Shown here: positions 2,278 through 24,772 of the stretch, in pieces
Numbering within the stretch: the first letter of the stretch is position 1
Layout: every line of letters starts with the position of its first letter
Origin: a virus
IMG/VR virus record: IMGVR_UViG_3300047356_000900
Location: 1-25,647 of that record
Direction: 5' to 3' (one strand)
DNA length: 25,647 nt
Position numbers and translations under genes: made by a program
Notes under the pieces: generated by a model
Database searches by the model: none
Seen by the model: only the letters and a program-made list of their open reading frames with translations
Told to the model about the DNA's origin: nothing

Positions 2278-5200
2278 ATGAGTACACAAGTTGCCCGCAT
2301 TGGTGGACAGTTACTACAAGATAACTTATTAAGAGAATTAGCAGATTTAAAATTTGATAATGATCTTCTTGTTGTCAAACGTGATAATACTTTAGGTATT
2401 AACACTACAACAACTCCTCGTAACTTAACAATAAACGGTACAATACGTACAGCATCAGGTAATAGTGATCCAGATATTATATTTGGTAACAGTCTTAAAG
2501 TTGGCGATATTACACTTGCAACTACAGGTATTAGTACACCTAGCGGAAATGTTACACTTAAATCTACACACTCTCAAGGATACATAACAACCACAGGTAT
2601 TGGTAGTTATAACTTTGCCGTTAAAGGTGATGGTATTCAAGCCTTACAAACTAACGGCGGTATTGGTATTAAGTCAGAAGTTCTTGACGGACAAACAGCG
2701 GCTTGGAATTCAAACGGCAACTACGGAAACTATTGGAATCCAGGACCAAAGATAAGTGCAAGTAGCCCACCAAACGACATGGATCGTTTGTATGATTATG
2801 CACTATCATTATCACAATCAGGTAACTGGACAGCAGAAGAACTAGCGGCACTTGACTGGGACGGTGACGGCGATATTCAAGCAGATGACGTATTACAGTT
2901 AAAAGAATTAAACACACAATTTGTTAGTGGTACTGCTTTTCCTGCTTCAAACACATTAGCAGAACATGCAAACACAACAGCATTTAAAGCATACATTGAA
3001 AAATATTATCCAAGAAGTGTTCCAAGACAATTACAGTTACAAACAGGAGGAACACTTACTGTAACTGGTAATGTACACGCTACTGGAGATATTACATACG
3101 GTGGTACTTCAATTACAATCGGTGATGATAGTACTGACACAGCAAGTTTCTTAGCAGAATTTAAAAACGATTTAATACCAGATGATAGTGATAGATTTCA
3201 TATTGGTAAAGACGATGATAGTACAGGCCCTGCAAAAGGATTTAAAATTGCTGTTGATAACTTAGTTTCAGATAGTGTAAAAGCAAACGGACTAGTTTAT
3301 CAAGGCATTGAACTTACAAAAGATGTTGGTATCTACTTTGTATCGTCTAACAACGGTGCAGATACTAATGACGGTAATAACCCAGGCGGTCCATTTGCTA
3401 CGCTTACAAAAGCCCTTAGCGTTGCTGTAGACGGAGATCTAATTTACATATACCCAGGACAGTACCAAGAAACATTTCCAATGACTGTACCTAAGGGTGT
3501 TACAATCCAAGGTGATAGTATTCGCGGCGTAGAAATATATCCAACAAGTGCAACACAAAGTAATGATGCATTTTTAGTAAACAGCGATGTTACTATTGAA
3601 AATATTACTCTTAAAGATTATTATTATAATAGTGGAGCAAATACAGGATACGGATTTAGATTTGTTAATAACTTTTCAACAACTATATTTGAACAAGAAC
3701 CTGGAAGAAGTCCGTATATAAGAAATGTAACTGTACTAACTAAAGGTACAACTACAAGTGCAAGCGATCCTAGAGGCTTTGCCGCAGGCGATGCTGGTAA
3801 AGGAGCTCTAGTTGACGGACAAGTAGTTGCATCAAATAGTAGAAGTGCAAGTATGCTATTTCATAGTTGTACATTTATTACTCCTGGTGTAGATGGATTA
3901 ACAATTACAAATGGCGTAAGAGTTGAATGGCTTAATAGTTTCACATACTTTGCTAACAGAGGCATTTATATGTCGCAAGGATCTGCTGGTAGAACAACAC
4001 CAGAAGCAACAACAGTATACGGAGGCGAATTAAGAACTATTGCAAGTGCTAACGTATATGGTAACAAAGGTATTGAAGCAGATGGCGCTAATTGTTTAGC
4101 ATATATGATTAATCAAAATTTTGCATACATTGGCTCTGGCAAAAATGTTACTAATGATAATACAACAACTATTCAAGCAAATGAAGTAATAGAATTAAAC
4201 AATGCTAAAGTATACTTTACAGGACAAGACCAAAAAGGAAACTTTAGAGTTGGTGACAAGTTTTTAGTTGACTTAGAAAATGAAAGAACTAGTTTTGATA
4301 TTGAAAGTATTTTTGCAACAAATTCACAAGTACAAATACGTAATAACAATGACACAGTTACACTTAATCAAGGAGTAGTTGCATTAGATAATATTGTTGT
4401 TCAAGGCAATGTAATTGAAGCAACTAAATCTGCTATTAACTTTAATAGTGTTGGAAACATTGTATTCCAAGGAAATGTAACTGCACCAAGTGTTGATATG
4501 ACAGGCAATTTATCAATTGATGGCGCACTTACTACAATAGGTGATGCTCCAACTGATACTGTTGATTTTAACACAAACATTAGTCAAGACTTTGAACCTG
4601 GTTCAACTGAAGGTTTAACTTTAGGTACTGCCGCAAATCGTTGGAAAGAATTACATACTAAAACAGCGAATATTAATACTATTAGTATTTCGTCTCAAAC
4701 TATTGCAACTAACGAATCAAATGCAGATTTATATATTACTGCAAAAGGTACAGGTAAAGTTCGTGTAGAAAACTTAGAATTTGAAGATAATAAAATTATT
4801 GGTAAGTTTAGTCCGGAAGGTGAATTTATTGTTACTGATTATGAATTATCAACTCCTGATATATTTAACGGAAATCAAGGATTTAAAACACAACTTCCAA
4901 GGTATACTACAGTATTTGGTATTCCTGTATTAGGTACAGCAAACGTTAGTGACCTTGCAATTAAACATGCGGCAAATATGTTAGCAAGTTATTTAGATAA
5001 CAACTTTGATGGTGTTGCTGATAATACAGCATTACTTGCAACGTTCTCGAGCGGATTATACGGAATTGTTGTATATGCTGATGCAAGTGAAGAAACAACA
5101 TTAGCAAGTACATTTGGATCATTTGCTGTAAACAGAACCTTTGGTGTTTATCAAAACGAAATGAATAGTTATTTAGGTGACGGTGTAGGTAGTCAAAGAG

Positions 5201-6333
5201 ATTTAGCAAGCGAAAAAATATTAAAAAATATGATTATTCCAAGAATAAGCGGATTGCACACAGCGTTAAGTACAACTAGACCAAGCACACTTACAACTGC
5301 AATGGATTCTGCACGTGGCGGATATCAAGAAGGTGGACAAGCAGGCTATAACTATCCAGCATTTGCATGGTATACTGATCCTACAGGATTGAACTATAAT
5401 GATTTATGTTATGAGTACTTGTACTTGTTAACAACAGCAATGTCTGGAGCGTTAGTTTGGAGAGCACCTAGCATAACATCATTATTTGATCATTACTCAA
5501 GTTTATTACTAGCAAGTAACGATGCGGCAGGATATTCAATAGTAAACACTGCTTCTTTTTACTTGCCTATTACAAACACTCCTTCAATAGATTATTGGAC
5601 AAGTGTAACAAATGTTTTAGGAGGAACTAGTAGAGATGTTATACTTAAACCCGCAGGTAATGTAACTGTAAGTGCAACAAGTAACATAACACTTCCTAAA
5701 GGTACAACAGCCCAACGTCCAGCATTACAAGGTGGTATAAGATATAATAATACTTTTGATACGCTCGAAGGATTAGAAGTTGCTGGTAGTGTCTCACTTG
5801 ATGGTATTTACGATACTGATAGAGATACTTACTTAGACTTATCAAACAATCAGTTTAACTTTGTTACAGCAGGACAAACGAATCATACACTTAACGGAAC
5901 ACTAATTGAATCAAATGGATTTAGTAGTGAGCATAAATTTAGTATTGACGGTAATATAGTTTCAAGTGACGAATCTAATGGTACAAGTATACTTAGATCT
6001 AATGGAACTGGATATACTGAAATAGAAAATATTAAATTTAGAGATAGTGAGTTATGGAACTGGTCAAGTGATAACTTCACTTTTGGCTTAACCAATACAA
6101 CAGGTGAAGCTTTCTTAAAAATTGACAACACAAGCGGTATGGTTGTACCGCAAGGTACTACAGCACAGCGTCCTGCAGGACCAGAAGTTGGACATACTAG
6201 GTACAATTTAACACTAGAATATCTTGAAACTTGGAACGGATCTAACTGGATTAATGCGGCTGGTGAAGTTGAAAGTATTGAATCATCTGATGTTGAACAA
6301 TTGGCCTACGTTTTTAACCTTATACTAGACTAA
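2278..6333 (+). CDS. Giant tail-fibre-like protein with beta-helix, dockerin-like loop and inserted helical domain (1351 aa)
   Basis: Paralogue of the product at 6473. Residues about 1-55 (ARIGGQLLQDNLLRELADL) match that protein's N-terminus and are probably the virion anchor. Residues 193-204 form a textbook EF-hand/dockerin loop (DWDGDGDIQADD). IGD..TDT modules sit at about 281 and 754. Residues about 352-615 are a DUF1565-like right-handed beta-helix (IYPGQYQETFPMTVPKGVTI). A VYFTGQDQKGNFRVG module is at 645. Residues about 862-1115 are a non-repetitive, largely helical domain with a second Ca-type loop (DNNFDGVAD, 907-915), absent from the paralogue. C-terminal PKGTTAQRP and PQGTTAQRP modules are at about 1140 and 1291. 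GAGAGGGA precedes the ATG. The protein is probably trimeric and on the virion surface, for host binding; the function of the inserted domain is unknown. Confidence 0.82.
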   Translation: MSTQVARIGGQLLQDNLLRELADLKFDNDLLVVKRDNTLGINTTTTPRNLTINGTIRTASGNSDPDIIFGNSLKVGDITLATTGISTPSGNVTLKSTHSQGYITTTGIGSYNFAVKGDGIQALQTNGGIGIKSEVLDGQTAAWNSNGNYGNYWNPGPKISASSPPNDMDRLYDYALSLSQSGNWTAEELAALDWDGDGDIQADDVLQLKELNTQFVSGTAFPASNTLAEHANTTAFKAYIEKYYPRSVPRQLQLQTGGTLTVTGNVHATGDITYGGTSITIGDDSTDTASFLAEFKNDLIPDDSDRFHIGKDDDSTGPAKGFKIAVDNLVSDSVKANGLVYQGIELTKDVGIYFVSSNNGADTNDGNNPGGPFATLTKALSVAVDGDLIYIYPGQYQETFPMTVPKGVTIQGDSIRGVEIYPTSATQSNDAFLVNSDVTIENITLKDYYYNSGANTGYGFRFVNNFSTTIFEQEPGRSPYIRNVTVLTKGTTTSASDPRGFAAGDAGKGALVDGQVVASNSRSASMLFHSCTFITPGVDGLTITNGVRVEWLNSFTYFANRGIYMSQGSAGRTTPEATTVYGGELRTIASANVYGNKGIEADGANCLAYMINQNFAYIGSGKNVTNDNTTTIQANEVIELNNAKVYFTGQDQKGNFRVGDKFLVDLENERTSFDIESIFATNSQVQIRNNNDTVTLNQGVVALDNIVVQGNVIEATKSAINFNSVGNIVFQGNVTAPSVDMTGNLSIDGALTTIGDAPTDTVDFNTNISQDFEPGSTEGLTLGTAANRWKELHTKTANINTISISSQTIATNESNADLYITAKGTGKVRVENLEFEDNKIIGKFSPEGEFIVTDYELSTPDIFNGNQGFKTQLPRYTTVFGIPVLGTANVSDLAIKHAANMLASYLDNNFDGVADNTALLATFSSGLYGIVVYADASEETTLASTFGSFAVNRTFGVYQNEMNSYLGDGVGSQRDLASEKILKNMIIPRISGLHTALSTTRPSTLTTAMDSARGGYQEGGQAGYNYPAFAWYTDPTGLNYNDLCYEYLYLLTTAMSGALVWRAPSITSLFDHYSSLLLASNDAAGYSIVNTASFYLPITNTPSIDYWTSVTNVLGGTSRDVILKPAGNVTVSATSNITLPKGTTAQRPALQGGIRYNNTFDTLEGLEVAGSVSLDGIYDTDRDTYLDLSNNQFNFVTAGQTNHTLNGTLIESNGFSSEHKFSIDGNIVSSDESNGTSILRSNGTGYTEIENIKFRDSELWNWSSDNFTFGLTNTTGEAFLKIDNTSGMVVPQGTTAQRPAGPEVGHTRYNLTLEYLETWNGSNWINAAGEVESIESSDVEQLAYVFNLILD

Positions 6334-6472: not shown

Positions 6473-9400
6473 ATGGCAATTGGTCGCATATCGGGTCCTC
6501 TCTTAAAGGAAAATCTCCTACGTAATGGTACGGATTTAGCCTTTGAGACAGACTTATTATACTTAGATGTAACAAACCGTCGAATCGGTGTTAAAACTAC
6601 CAATCCTCAATACGCATTAGATGTTGCAGGCGTTGCCAGAGTAACAGATCTAGAAATTACAAACACTACTTTCCAAGTTGGAAACGTAACTATTAATGGT
6701 GCAACTAGCACTATTTCAACTTCCGCACAAGAATTTGCTATTGCAACTGCTGACAATACTATTGTTGGTAATAGAGTTGTTGTAGGCGACTTAGAAATTA
6801 ATAATACATTTATTGAAAACACAAATACAAATGATGATTTGTATATACGTGCTAACGGCACTGGCGTAATTAATATTGTAGGTAACACAACTGTTACTGG
6901 TAACTTACACGCTACAGGAAATATTAGTGCAGACGGAAATATTACAATTGGTGACAGTGACACTGATAACATTTTTATTAATGCAGACATTGCAAGTGAT
7001 ATTATGCCTGATGTGCATAACACTTATAATATTGGTACTGCAACAAAACGTTGGGCAACAGGTAACTTTGCTAACGTAACAACAAACACACTAACAACAA
7101 ACGACCTAGACTTTGGTGCTATTGACTTGATCAGTATACCAGGAAATATTATATATGTAGCAACTAACGGTAGTGATGCAAGAACAGGTACACACCCACA
7201 AGATCCAGTTGCAACTATTGCAAAGGGTTTAGAGCTTGCTGGCTTACACGACACAGTTTACATTTATCCTGGACAATATCAAGAAGCATTTCCATTAACA
7301 GTACCACAAGGTGTTACAGTAAGAGGACACAGTTTACGTGCAGTTGAAATTGCACCAACAAGCGGAACACAAAGTAATGATGCTTTTGTAATGAATGGCG
7401 ACTCAGCAGTTGAAGATGTTACTATCAAAGATTTTTATTATAATAGTGGAGCAGTAACAGGACATGCTTTTCGTTTTGCAAACAACTTTAGAGTTTATGA
7501 AAGATCACCTTATATTAGAAATGTAAGTGTAATTACAAAAGGTACAACAATTTCTAATACAGATCCAAGAGGATTTGCGGCAGGTGATGCAGGACGCGGA
7601 GCATACTTAGATGGTAGCGTTGCACACGTAGACTCACGTGAAGCATCAATGTTATTCCACAGCGTAACATTTATTACACCAAATGCAAGTGGACTAAAAG
7701 TTACTAATGGTGCAAGAGTAGAATGGCTAAACTGTTTTACATATTTTGCAGACAAAGGTATTGAAATACTTGAAGGCACAACTGGTCTTAAAGGCGATGG
7801 TAAAACAAGAATTAAGTATAGCGGATTAGCAGGAACAACACCTGCCGCAGGACAAACAATTACACTTAAAGATGCAAGTGGAACACAATTAGCACAATCA
7901 ACTATTGAAAGCGTTGCAACTAATGAAGTTATTATTGATGGCAGAGCCAACGGATTTATTACTCCATTAAGCAGAGCTAAGAAAACAGTTACAGCAGTTG
8001 GCAATGCACAGATAACAACAACTGCTCCAGTTAAATATGGTACTGGTATAGGATTGTTTGACGGTACTGATGATAGATTTACATTAACAACAGCAAGTGA
8101 CTTTGGATTTGGAACTGGCGACTTTAGTGTTGAATGCGTAATTTATATTGCAGATGATACTGGAACTGAAAGTAAATTTGATTTTAGAGCAGGATCAGAT
8201 ACAGACAACGCATTACATTTTTATACAGTTGATAGACAGCCTAAAGTATACATTGGTAATACAGAGATTATGGCTCCTGCAATTACTTTAGTAAACACTA
8301 CTTACTATCATATTATGATATCAAGAGTAGGAACTACAATCAAATTATTTGTAGATGGTGCAGTACAAGCAACAACAAGTAACAATACTAATTTAGGTAC
8401 TACTAAGCCGTTAGTAATTGGTAACAACTATGCAGGTACACAAGGCTTTGACGGACGTATAGATGACTTTAGAGTTAGAAAAGGCGCTGGAGTAACAAAC
8501 GCATTTAGTAATCCTACAGCACCAACAGTAGTTGATCAATATACAGTTTTAAAATTAGACTTTAATGGTGACAACGGATCACAAATTTTAGTAGACGATG
8601 ATACGTTTATTCAAGACATTGACTTTAGTGCAGGTGGTACAGCTACAGCACTAACACTAATTGACCATTCGGACTTTGGTGGAGAAATTAGAAGTATTGC
8701 AAGTGCAAGTGTTTACGGCAACTATGGAATACATGGCACAGGTAGCGGATCAGTTGTTTATGCAATTGGTATGAACCTTGCTTACATTGGCACAGGTAAA
8801 GATGTAACTAACGATACAACAGCAGTAATACAAGCAAACGAAGTAGTTGCTAATAGTGATGCAAACGTTTACTTTAGCACAGTTGATCATAAAGGTGACT
8901 TTAGAGTTGGAGACTTATTTAGAATTAATCAAGAAACAGGCGAAGTAACATTTACTAATGCAGAATTCTTATTCAATAACAATCAGGGTATTACATTTAC
9001 TGACGGGACAAGTACAACAATAATTGATGGTACAAAAGTTGAAAGTGGAAATATTAGAATAAGCGGGAATACTATTAGTAGTACAAGCGGTGATATTAAT
9101 ATTAATAGTTCTACTAGTACAATTAATTTACAAGATAATGTTAATATTACAGGTAACTTAGATGTTACAGGAAACGTAACTGTCGGCGGCAATATTACAC
9201 TTGGTGACGAAGATACAGATACAATTAATATTAATGCAAGAATTGACAGTGACATTGTACCTAATCTTGATGACACATACAAATTAGGTACAGCATTACT
9301 AAACTGGTCAGAAGCAAACATTGGTAAAGTATACATTGATGATATTATTATTGATAATGATACAATTACTACAACTGCAAGTAACGGTGATATTAATATT

Positions 9401-10189
9401 ACAACTAATGGTGTTGGCCAAGTTATTATTGACAACATCGAACTTAGTGGAAATACTGTTGCTAACCCGGGCGGAGATATTGTATTAGATCCAAGTAGTC
9501 AAACTGTAACAATTAATGGTACAGGATCTTTAACATTACCTAAAGGTACAACAGCACAACGTCCTGGATCACCTACAGCAGGTATGATACGTTACAACAC
9601 AGATACTTCGGTATTTGAAGCATATACTACTAGCTGGAATACACTAGGTGGTGTATACGATCTTGATAGAGATACTTATATCACACCAGAAATAACACCA
9701 GGTGCAGATGACGATACATTACGCTTTTATGCTGGTGGATCGCTAGTAGCTGATGTTACTGCACAAAGATTTGATGCAAAACGTTTAGAAGTTGATGATA
9801 TTGCTGTACACGGTAACGTATTAGAAACAATTACAACCAATCAAAACTTGCTTTTACGTGCAAATGGAAGCGGTTATGTTGCTGTTGAAAACTTTAGTTT
9901 TAACGGAAATCAGATAACTAATACTATAGACGGTGCTGTTACTTCATTAAAGCAACAAGGTTCAGGCTACTTTAAAGTTGACGGTACAGGCGGTTTTGTT
10001 ATTCCAGTTGGTAATAACGCAAATAGACATCCTAGTCCAGAACTTGGCATGATGCGTTATAATACAGTGGAAGACAGAGTTGAAATATATGATGTAGGTA
10101 ATAACTGGGTTTCAGTTGCAGGTGCTACTGGTGCTGTTACATTTAACGATGCAGAGGAAATTGCAATTAAACTTGCATTAACAATTTAG
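6473..10189 (+). CDS. Giant tail-fibre-like protein with beta-helix and LamG-like domain (1238 aa)
   Basis: Paralogue of the product at 2278. The N-terminus (GRISGPLLKENLLRNGTDL) aligns with it. IGD..TDN modules are at about 159 and 910, and a DUF1565-like beta-helix starts near 226 (IYPGQYQEAFPLTVPQGVTV). Residues about 430-735 are an insert relative to the paralogue. It contains a concanavalin-like LamG domain (about 519-685): GLFDGTDDRFTL, then FSVECVIY, then YHIMISRVGTTIKLFVDGA, ending GRIDDFRVRKGA. After the insert the common scaffold resumes with GGEIRSIASASVYGN, and VYFSTVDHKGDFRVG follows at 799. The C-terminus carries LPKGTTAQRP (about 1023) and a degenerate copy near 1178. LamG folds bind carbohydrates or proteins, so this fibre probably contacts a surface glycan (inference). 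The ATG is set by AGGAG at 6463-6467. Confidence 0.82.
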   Translation: MAIGRISGPLLKENLLRNGTDLAFETDLLYLDVTNRRIGVKTTNPQYALDVAGVARVTDLEITNTTFQVGNVTINGATSTISTSAQEFAIATADNTIVGNRVVVGDLEINNTFIENTNTNDDLYIRANGTGVINIVGNTTVTGNLHATGNISADGNITIGDSDTDNIFINADIASDIMPDVHNTYNIGTATKRWATGNFANVTTNTLTTNDLDFGAIDLISIPGNIIYVATNGSDARTGTHPQDPVATIAKGLELAGLHDTVYIYPGQYQEAFPLTVPQGVTVRGHSLRAVEIAPTSGTQSNDAFVMNGDSAVEDVTIKDFYYNSGAVTGHAFRFANNFRVYERSPYIRNVSVITKGTTISNTDPRGFAAGDAGRGAYLDGSVAHVDSREASMLFHSVTFITPNASGLKVTNGARVEWLNCFTYFADKGIEILEGTTGLKGDGKTRIKYSGLAGTTPAAGQTITLKDASGTQLAQSTIESVATNEVIIDGRANGFITPLSRAKKTVTAVGNAQITTTAPVKYGTGIGLFDGTDDRFTLTTASDFGFGTGDFSVECVIYIADDTGTESKFDFRAGSDTDNALHFYTVDRQPKVYIGNTEIMAPAITLVNTTYYHIMISRVGTTIKLFVDGAVQATTSNNTNLGTTKPLVIGNNYAGTQGFDGRIDDFRVRKGAGVTNAFSNPTAPTVVDQYTVLKLDFNGDNGSQILVDDDTFIQDIDFSAGGTATALTLIDHSDFGGEIRSIASASVYGNYGIHGTGSGSVVYAIGMNLAYIGTGKDVTNDTTAVIQANEVVANSDANVYFSTVDHKGDFRVGDLFRINQETGEVTFTNAEFLFNNNQGITFTDGTSTTIIDGTKVESGNIRISGNTISSTSGDININSSTSTINLQDNVNITGNLDVTGNVTVGGNITLGDEDTDTININARIDSDIVPNLDDTYKLGTALLNWSEANIGKVYIDDIIIDNDTITTTASNGDINITTNGVGQVIIDNIELSGNTVANPGGDIVLDPSSQTVTINGTGSLTLPKGTTAQRPGSPTAGMIRYNTDTSVFEAYTTSWNTLGGVYDLDRDTYITPEITPGADDDTLRFYAGGSLVADVTAQRFDAKRLEVDDIAVHGNVLETITTNQNLLLRANGSGYVAVENFSFNGNQITNTIDGAVTSLKQQGSGYFKVDGTGGFVIPVGNNANRHPSPELGMMRYNTVEDRVEIYDVGNNWVSVAGATGAVTFNDAEEIAIKLALTI

Positions 10190-22231: not shown

Positions 22232-23071
22232 ATGGCAACATACAGCAGTTACAAAAAGGTTACATCGGAAGGAATACCCGACGGATCAATCACACGTACC
22301 AAGTTACAACCTGGTGCAGGTGCTTGTCGTAAGACACAATGGGTATTCAACGAACGCGGTATGCAATGTCATATGTGTGCAAGAACATCAGGATGTTGTC
22401 AACAGGCAAATGGTAGATGTTGCTATTGGTGTGCACCAGACAATGTCTACAAAGTAACATTTGAAATTTGGGGCGGCGGAGGCGGCGGTCCAGGACATAC
22501 ATGTTGTAATTGTTGTTCATTTGCAATTGGTGGTGCAGGCGGAAACTATGCAATTCAAACAATTGATACCAATCCAGGATGTCAATATAGTGTTTGTGCA
22601 GGCGGAAGTTGGCCATGTGGTAAATCACATACGTGTTCAGCGGGCATGGGTTGTAAATCCTATGTTAACGGTCACAACCTAAGTAACTTTTGTGTTACTG
22701 GGGCATGTGGCGGTTGGATGTGTAATGGTGATGCATGGGGTCAAAGACATGCTGTAACAAACTGTGCGAACTGTTTAATTTGTGGAATATTTGGTGCTGA
22801 CTTTGGAATGATGGGCGGTATGGGTATTAAAGCAGGTACAACAACTTGTAGATGTCACGGACAAACAGGTTGGACAGGAGCGGCCGCAGGTATGGGTGTA
22901 TACGCTGGTACAACTACTAACGAAGCGTGGTGTGCTTGTGGATGTCATATTGTTTGGCCAGCAGGCGGCGGTGTTCCAGGAACATCTAGTTACTGTAACA
23001 ACTGGGCAAAATGCTGTTCAGGTGGTTCAGGTCAAGGCGGATCTGGCATAGTAAAAATAACGTTTGTATAA
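22232..23071 (+). CDS. Cys/Gly-rich adhesin-like protein, copy 1 (279 aa, 31 Cys)
   Basis: First of three tandem paralogues. By hand count it has 31 cysteines (about 11%), many as CC, CxxC or CxC, for example CHMCARTSGCC, CCNCC, CANCLIC and CACGC. Residues 1-30 (MATYSSYKKV, then GSITRTKL) are a low-complexity lead like virion-attachment peptides. EIWGGGGGGPG and GGAGGNY recall glycine-rich fibre domains and the poly-glycine adhesins of T-even phages. GCKSYVNG, LSNFC, GWMCNG and CGIFGADFG (188-192) are shared by all copies. Residues about 197-230 differ strongly between copies. It ends WAKCCSGG...GSGIVKITFV. No signal peptide. Cysteines may bind metal or form disulfides after release; neither can be decided from sequence. 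The ribosome binding site is AAGGAAA. Receptor binding is inference. Confidence 0.8.
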   Translation: MATYSSYKKVTSEGIPDGSITRTKLQPGAGACRKTQWVFNERGMQCHMCARTSGCCQQANGRCCYWCAPDNVYKVTFEIWGGGGGGPGHTCCNCCSFAIGGAGGNYAIQTIDTNPGCQYSVCAGGSWPCGKSHTCSAGMGCKSYVNGHNLSNFCVTGACGGWMCNGDAWGQRHAVTNCANCLICGIFGADFGMMGGMGIKAGTTTCRCHGQTGWTGAAAGMGVYAGTTTNEAWCACGCHIVWPAGGGVPGTSSYCNNWAKCCSGGSGQGGSGIVKITFV

Positions 23072-23083
23072 GGAAAGAAAATA

Positions 23084-23920
23084 ATGGCAACATACGCAAG
23101 TTATAAAACATTAACAGCAGACAACTTCCAAGAAAATAGTATTACGGCGGCTAAACTAGGTGCAGGCGCTGGTAACAAATATTGTGTATTTTGGGTTTAT
23201 AATGAACGTGGCATGTATTGTCAAGCATGTTCAGATGCTGGCGATTGTTGTGAACAAGCAAATGGTAAGTGTTGTTACTGGACAGTTCCAGCTAACACTT
23301 CAAAAGTAGTATTTGAAATTTGGTCAGGTGGAGGCGGTGGCGCAGGCGCTACTTGCTGTAACAACTGTATGCACTCTGCAGGTGGATCAGGCGGTAACTA
23401 CGGTGTAAAAACTATTGATACATGTCCAGGTTGTACATATTCAATTTGTGCAGGTGGAACATGGCGTTGTAGTAAATCACATACTTGTGTAGCAGGTATG
23501 GGTTGTAAGAGTTATGTTAATGGTGCAAATTTAAGTAACTTCTGTACTACAGGTGGATGTCCGGGTTGGATGTGTAACGGTGGTGCATGGGGACCGAACC
23601 ATACACAAACATGTGGTAATTGTAATATATGTGGAATTTTTGGAGCAGACTTTGGAATTATGGGATCAACCGGGGTAACAGGTGGACACGGTGGATGTCA
23701 ATGTAAATCAGGTGACTGGGGAATGTCAGGTGCGGCACCTTTTGTAGGCAGACATAGTGCAGGCGCAACTACACAAGCATGGTGTAACTGTGCATGTTAT
23801 GTTAACTGGCCAGCAGGTGGCGGACAAACAGGAATGAGTTCATATTGTGGTAACTGGGCAAAATGTTGTGCAGGCGGCAATATGGGTGGATCAGGCATGG
23901 TTAGAATAACATTCGCATAG
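23084..23920 (+). CDS. Cys/Gly-rich adhesin-like protein, copy 2 (278 aa, 30 Cys)
   Basis: Second copy, 12 bases after copy 1 (AAGGAAAG before the ATG). It has 30 cysteines, nearly all in register with the other copies. This copy lacks some Cys present in copies 1 and 3: the YWC position reads YWT, and CCNCC reads CCNNC. It has an extra one in TIDTCPGC. The glycine-rich signature is EIWSGGGGGAG, and GADFG is at 187-191. The divergent segment (about 195-231) reads STGVTGGHGGCQCKSGDWG and then a His/Ala-containing stretch, unlike either neighbour. The end is KCCAGGNMGGSG and a short hydrophobic strand. It is the most divergent member overall, which may reflect a different ligand; that is inference. 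Confidence 0.8.
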   Translation: MATYASYKTLTADNFQENSITAAKLGAGAGNKYCVFWVYNERGMYCQACSDAGDCCEQANGKCCYWTVPANTSKVVFEIWSGGGGGAGATCCNNCMHSAGGSGGNYGVKTIDTCPGCTYSICAGGTWRCSKSHTCVAGMGCKSYVNGANLSNFCTTGGCPGWMCNGGAWGPNHTQTCGNCNICGIFGADFGIMGSTGVTGGHGGCQCKSGDWGMSGAAPFVGRHSAGATTQAWCNCACYVNWPAGGGQTGMSSYCGNWAKCCAGGNMGGSGMVRITFA

Positions 23921-23932
23921 TAAGGATAAGAA

Positions 23933-24772
23933 ATGGCAACATACGCAAGTTATAAAAAAGTAGCAAATGACAGTATAGTTAACGGAACAATTACATCCGC
24001 TGATATCGCACACGGTAACGGTAACAATATGGGTGTAAAATGGATTTACAATGAACGTGGCATGCAATGTCATCAGTGTGCTAGACAATCAGGTTGCTGT
24101 CAACAAGCAAACGGAAAGTGTTGTTACTGGTGTGTACCAGATGGTGCAAGTACAGTAACATTCGAAATTTGGTCAGGTGGCGGTGGTGGCCCAGGTCACA
24201 CTTGCTGTAACTGTTGTTCATTTTCAATTGGCGGCGCTGGAGGCAATTATGGGTCTAAGACTATTGCAACATCTCCAGGATGTCAGTACAGTGTATGTGC
24301 TGGTGGTGCTTGGCCGTGTGGTAAAGCACATACTTGTGGTGCAAGTATGGGTTGTAAGAGTTATGTAAACGGACATAACTTATCGAATTTTTGTACAGTA
24401 GGCGGCTGTGGTGGCTGGATGTGTAACGGAGACGCATGGGGTCCAAGACACACACACTTTGGTTGTGAAAACTGTAATAGATGTGGTATTTTTGGAGCAG
24501 ATTTTGGAATGATGGGATCTACAGGATGGGAACCAGGACATGGTTACTGTCACTGTGTGTATCAGTATTCAGGATCAGGACAACCTCCATTAATTGGTAA
24601 AATGACAGTATCAGTAACTAGCGAAGGATGGTGTAACTGCGGTTGCCATATTGAGTGGCCAGCAGGGGGCGGAATGCCAGGCGTTAGTTCATATTGTGGT
24701 AACTGGGCTAAGTGCTGTGCAGGTGGATCTGGACAAGGCGGCTCAGGCGTTGTTCGAATAACATTCATGTAA
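23933..24772 (+). CDS. Cys/Gly-rich adhesin-like protein, copy 3 (279 aa, 30 Cys)
   Basis: Third copy, 12 bases after copy 2 (AAGGATAAG before the ATG). The first half is very close to copy 1 (CHQCARQSGCCQQANGKCC, CCNCCSFSIGGAGGNY, GCKSYVNGHNLSNFC), so these two may be the most recent pair, or may be homogenised by recombination. The N-terminus (MATYASYKK) is closer to copy 2. GADFG is at 188-192. The divergent segment (about 196-231) is EPGHGYCHCVYQYSGSGQPP followed by LIGKMTVSVTSEGW. It ends CCAGGSGQGGSGVVRITFM. The mosaic similarity pattern suggests recombination among copies. Same uncertain role as copy 1: probable surface adhesin or fibre tip. Confidence 0.8.
   Translation: MATYASYKKVANDSIVNGTITSADIAHGNGNNMGVKWIYNERGMQCHQCARQSGCCQQANGKCCYWCVPDGASTVTFEIWSGGGGGPGHTCCNCCSFSIGGAGGNYGSKTIATSPGCQYSVCAGGAWPCGKAHTCGASMGCKSYVNGHNLSNFCTVGGCGGWMCNGDAWGPRHTHFGCENCNRCGIFGADFGMMGSTGWEPGHGYCHCVYQYSGSGQPPLIGKMTVSVTSEGWCNCGCHIEWPAGGGMPGVSSYCGNWAKCCAGGSGQGGSGVVRITFM

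What the first reader, a model, noticed from the sequence alone, without database searches (positions are those of the whole stretch)
4861..5622. Globular, mainly helical domain inserted into a beta-structured fibre
Residues about 862-1115 of the 2278 product are non-repetitive and lack the Thr/Asn-rich fibre composition. Motifs are TVFGIPVLGTANVSD, KHAANMLASYLDNNFDGVAD (with a Ca-type loop 907-915), MDSARGG (1009-1015), YNYPAFAWY (1024-1032) and YEYLYLLTTAMSGALVWRA. The string is reminiscent of a family of uncharacterised secreted proteins I recall from marine bacteria and algae, with HAAnvlAqYLDNdeDG and ARGG...YP..AWY...EYlYW blocks. That recollection is unverified. The paralogue at 6473 lacks the domain. 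A cellular-type secreted domain on a phage fibre would be new to me.
Basis: partly seen in the sequence, partly recalled or inferred. Interest (0 to 1): 0.75.

Follow-up and report, generated by a model that had tools for sequence, protein, structure and literature searches.

The report
Bacterial secreted domain on phage fibre
A fibre protein of a large marine bacteria-infecting virus carries, inserted in its shaft, a compact domain related to an unnamed secreted bacterial protein, apparently stripped of that protein's most enzyme-like motif and kept, probably, for gripping something on the host surface.

Summary
Residues ~852-1121 of the 1351-residue fibre protein (window 2278-6333) form a non-repetitive insert that the paralogue at 6473 lacks at the same site. 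No Pfam, PHROG, NCBIfam or PDB entry matches it. The same insert occurs in 29 IMG/VR contigs (43-100% identity; same gene and site where checked; purifying selection). Seven of eight sampled contigs carry a T4-type capsid gene; the one compared is 67-70% identical to jumbo phages (GAP32, CBB). A second relative ends a giant baseplate-operon protein of another contractile-tail phage. Both relatives carry EEIxH; all 14 aligned fibre copies have E[KR]Ix[KR] instead, while the calcium-type loop, His, ARGG and EYxY are kept. Best reading: a secreted bacterial domain recruited as a calcium-stabilised, probably non-catalytic binding module. Fold and ligand are unknown (AlphaFold pLDDT 33 and 52); 'mainly helical' is unproven.

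The parts
2278..6333 (+). 1351-aa virion fibre protein (P0001) that carries the domain
   Evidence: PHROG tail / 'baseplate wedge subunit' matches to residues ~343-577
4831..5640 (+). the inserted domain, residues ~852-1121
   Evidence: alignment blocks A1/A2/A4; insert relative to paralogue
4966..5001 (+). HAANMLASYLDN segment (residues 897-908); His, Y, L, D, N invariant from phage to secreted protein
4996..5022 (+). calcium-type loop DNNFDGVAD (residues 907-915), D-x-[DN]-x-[DN]-[GN]-x-x-[DE] in all 16 aligned members
5212..5226 (+). EKILK (residues 979-983), the position of EEIxH in the secreted protein and in L056; Glu kept, second Glu and His replaced by Lys/Arg in every aligned fibre copy
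5302..5322 (+). MDSARGG motif (residues 1009-1015)
5347..5373 (+). YNYPAFAWY motif (residues 1024-1032)
5413..5427 (+). EYLYL (residues 1046-1050), EYIYW in the secreted protein
3340..4008 (+). module shared with cyanophage gp7-type and other tail proteins (residues ~355-577), probable beta-helix shaft
   Evidence: the beta-helix reading is inferred
6473..10189 (+). paralogous fibre (P0002) without the domain, with Laminin_G_3 at 8060-8479

Best explanation
P0001 is a virion fibre of a T4-like marine jumbo phage. Between two shaft segments it displays a ~265-residue globular domain homologous to an unnamed secreted bacterial protein. Shown by sequence: homology, clean insertion at one conserved site, vertical inheritance with the fibre, purifying selection, retention of the calcium-type loop and of the His, ARGG and EYxY positions, and replacement of EEIxH by E[KR]Ix[KR] in all fibre copies examined. 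Inferred: the loop binds calcium and rigidifies the domain; the altered motif means that whatever activity the EEIxH residues supply was dropped; the domain now serves as a binding head that holds the virion to a surface polymer or protein of the host, as the LamG insert of the paralogue and the FG-GAP insert of a relative presumably do.
For: Homology to the secreted protein: HMM E 5.7e-28, hhalign E 5.8e-22 over 239 columns. 29 IMG/VR contigs carry the domain; same gene and site where checked, and synteny holds down to 54% fibre identity. dN/dS about 0.15-0.20 against near relatives (L002-L008), like the flanks. Motif states. The same fibre system takes other cellular-type inserts: LamG in the paralogue, a ~400-aa FG-GAP repeat insert in L011's copy. 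A second contractile-tail phage fuses the same family to a giant protein behind gp25-like and Baseplate_J-like genes. Jumbo-phage fibres are known to carry adhesion domains (PMC7824862).
Against: No ligand, fold or virion location is shown. The EEIxH state rests on two sequences, only one of them complete. The function of EEIxH is unknown, so its loss need not mean loss of activity. The cellular nature of L061 rests on an apparent signal peptide, a stand-alone ORF at a provirus edge and an identifier that looks isolate-derived; it could be a prophage cargo gene.
Confidence: 0.6

Rival explanations
1. The domain is an active depolymerase or peptidase that uses residues other than EEIxH (for example the invariant His, Glu and Arg of HAAN, E979, ARGG and EYxY) to cut a host surface polymer during entry.
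For: Many kept polar residues: H897, E979, D1010, R1013, E1046. Tail-associated metal-dependent hydrolases are predicted in jumbo phages (YHYH domain, PMC7824862).
Against: The most enzyme-like motif of the relatives is replaced by Lys/Arg in every aligned fibre copy; no similarity to any known enzyme family or solved structure.
Confidence: 0.2
2. The domain is a structural part only (spacer, trimer clamp or folding aid for the fibre) with no binding role.
For: Fixed site and co-inheritance with the shaft.
Against: The paralogous fibre does without it at the same site; its closest relatives are a stand-alone secreted protein and a terminal domain of an unrelated baseplate-operon protein, contexts where a shaft clamp is not needed.
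Confidence: 0.15
3. It is an ordinary phage fibre domain or a continuation of the beta-structured shaft.
For: It lies in a fibre gene with PHROG tail matches.
Against: No convincing Pfam, PHROG or NCBIfam match for any of 15 members; no match in 50,697 phage records; homology to a stand-alone secreted protein.
Confidence: 0.03

Closest known systems
Unnamed secreted bacterial family, exemplar P0003 (L061, IMGVR_UViG_2751185719_000002)
   Same: Full-length homology; HAAN..YLDN segment, calcium-type loop, ARGG, YP..AW, EYxY
   Different: Stand-alone with apparent signal peptide; EEIWH intact; EYIYW has Trp where the phage has Leu; P0003 lacks the phage C-terminal SIDYWTxVTNxLGG block
C-terminal domain of the 1959-aa baseplate-operon protein of L056 (IMGVR_UViG_3300012950_001160)
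   Same: Same family (38-40% identity to P0003), on a tail structural protein
   Different: EEILH intact; terminal instead of inserted as far as the cut contig shows; unrelated carrier protein
Laminin_G_3, discoidin, C1q and YHYH domains on jumbo-phage fibres (PMC7824862)
   Same: Cellular-type extracellular domains displayed on fibres of jumbo phages
   Different: Different domain families; the present domain has no family model in the libraries searched
Cyanophage gp7-type / 'baseplate wedge initiator' long tail proteins
   Same: Share the shaft module, residues ~343-752
   Different: None in the phage collection carries the domain

Membership tests
Unnamed secreted family (exemplar P0003) | significant full-domain homology | tested here: met
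   E 5.7e-28; hhalign prob 99.4, 239 columns
Unnamed secreted family (exemplar P0003) | HAAN-x2-A-x-YLDN plus D-x-D-x-D-G-x-x-D loop | tested here: met
   third loop position is Asn in the window
Unnamed secreted family (exemplar P0003) | ARGG, YP..AW and EYxYW blocks | tested here: met
   final Trp is Leu in the window
Unnamed secreted family (exemplar P0003) | EEIxH motif | tested here: not met
   EKILK in the window, E[KR]Ix[KR] in all aligned fibre copies; hence a divergent homologue, not a full member
Unnamed secreted family (exemplar P0003) | own signal peptide / stand-alone secreted protein | tested here: not met
   inserted in a fibre without signal peptide
Zincin metallopeptidase | HExxH | tested here: not met
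   absent in the window domain, P0003 and the L056 domain
Zincin metallopeptidase | zincin fold | tested here: inconclusive
   model pLDDT 52; no significant Foldseek match; one VIA row at Z 4.3 over 74 residues, within noise
EF-hand / dockerin | 12-residue loop with acidic residue at position 12 | tested here: not met
   positions 1, 3, 5, 6, 9 fit; position 12 is Ala in the window, Leu in P0003 (sequences)
Standard phage fibre domains | match to a PHROG or Pfam fibre/tail family within 852-1121 | tested here: not met
T4-like jumbo phage (GAP32/CBB relatives) | T4-type capsid gene near the fibre locus, closest to these phages | tested here: met
   in syntenic contigs; the window itself does not contain the capsid gene

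The most novel reading that the evidence does not exclude
A previously unnamed family of secreted bacterial proteins with an EEIxH motif has been captured at least twice by contractile-tail phages, and in one jumbo-phage lineage converted into a pseudoenzyme in which Lys/Arg replace the motif's second Glu and His, displayed on a fibre as a receptor-binding head that may use the bacterial protein's own binding surface.
Probability: 0.3. Interest if true: 0.75.

Novelty: new variant of a known kind. Interest (0 to 1): 0.55.

Why it matters
It links an uncatalogued secreted bacterial family to phage host recognition and gives that family a first functional anchor: what the phage grips may be what the bacterial protein acts on. 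It also adds a new module to the cellular-type domains that jumbo phages display on their fibres, with an apparent step from motif-bearing to motif-less copies visible in sequence.

Tried and rejected
Metal-site modelling: the first AlphaFold job on the window domain gave pLDDT 33, the second on P0003 with 16 rows gave 52; neither supports a site. Fold searches in PDB and BFVD gave nothing significant; the single VIA row above Z 4 (a lethal factor chain, 74 residues) is treated as noise. Two genome-contig scans found no relative, but their peptide patterns were taken from phage-specific stretches, so they do not show absence from bacteria; bacterial genomes could not be reached with the genome search. 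Plasmid and phage records: no match (one chance-level hit). Pattern scans for EY.YW..T...GA, EEIxHLI...G[YF] and ARGG-N8-YP..AW[YF] gave no further family member beyond L061 and L056. A dockerin/EF-hand reading of the loop was rejected (position 12). Algal homologues could not be searched.

Full report
What is there. The ORF at 2278-6333 encodes a 1351-residue fibre-like protein, P0001. Its residues ~343-577 match PHROG tail families and cyanophage gp7-type proteins. The stretch has no similarity to the rest of the protein, to the paralogue P0002, or to any Pfam, PHROG, NCBIfam or PDB entry.

It is an insert. BLASTP between P0001 and P0002 aligns 569-878 with 719-1027 and 1112-1343 with 994-1231, leaving the domain unmatched. 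The conserved blocks across relatives run from about residue 852 to 1121. P0002 has a Laminin_G_3 domain elsewhere, and the P0001 orthologue in L011 carries an extra insert of about 400 residues with FG-GAP repeats. So this fibre system exchanges globular modules.

Distribution. 29 IMG/VR contigs hold the domain at 43-100% identity, in the same fibre gene and syntenic surroundings where checked. No phage isolate record holds it. A T4-type major capsid gene occurs in seven of eight such contigs; the copy from a contig syntenic with the window (L085) is 67-70% identical to jumbo phages such as Cronobacter phage GAP32, Pectobacterium phage CBB and Vibrio phage 2.275. One contig reaches 262 kb. 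The host is unknown. The domain diverges at about the pace of the whole protein and is under purifying selection, dN/dS about 0.15-0.20 against near relatives; dS is saturated against the distant ones, so their ratios are not used.

Relatives outside the fibre. A degenerate scan for HAAN.LA.YLDN found two further members. L061/P0003 is a stand-alone 287-aa protein starting MSRIKISILLIFSLIVIGKAHA, a signal peptide by inspection, at the very end of a 16.6-kb provirus record beside sheath, tube and GPD tail genes; the record identifier looks like that of an isolate genome (inference). The HMM of the phage copies matches it at E = 5.7e-28, and hhalign aligns 239 columns at 99.4% probability. L056 is a 1959-aa protein behind gp25-like and Baseplate_J-like genes of another contractile-tail phage; the family domain is at its end, cut by the contig (hhalign E = 3e-11).

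What changed. P0003 has EEIWH and L056 EEILH; the window has EKILK, and all 14 fibre copies in alignment A4 have E[KR]I[LF][KR]. hhalign aligns this stretch without a gap; MAFFT puts one gap next to the His, but no His is present in the fibre copies in either case. The calcium-type loop, the His of HAAN, ARGG and EYxY are kept. Since two otherwise unrelated carriers share EEIxH, the fibre state is most simply derived. This is an inference from two sequences, without a rooted tree.

How it most likely works. A fibre shaft that carries interchangeable cellular-type domains, and a domain that kept its conserved core but lost its most enzyme-like motif, point to a binding head used in host attachment. 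A published survey describes such adhesion domains on jumbo-phage fibres (PMC7824862). The ligand, the fold and any metal are not shown.

Limits. Both structure predictions are too weak to use: mean pLDDT 33 and 52. The better one suggests a mixed alpha/beta fold, so 'mainly helical' is unproven.

Noticed in passing
window 2776-2904 (P0001 residues 167-209): A sub-threshold dockerin type I match (E 0.038) with DWDGDGDIQADDVLQL, a second calcium-type loop in the same fibre.
   Followed up: no
window 22232-24772: Three tandem paralogues of 278-279 aa, each with 30-31 Cys and 54-56 Gly: unusually cysteine-rich for phage virion proteins.
   Followed up: no
L011 3070-4290: FG-GAP repeats (E 1e-55) inserted in the orthologous fibre, absent from the window.
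   Followed up: partly
L007 ~5470-5800 and L019 (fibre residues ~781-878): An extra insert of about 100 residues upstream of the domain; L007's copy has no Pfam match.
   Followed up: partly
window 2278-6333 against 6473-10189: The domain-bearing fibre diverges faster between relatives than its paralogue (54% against 63% in L029, 88% against 96% in L006), as expected of a recognition protein.
   Followed up: partly
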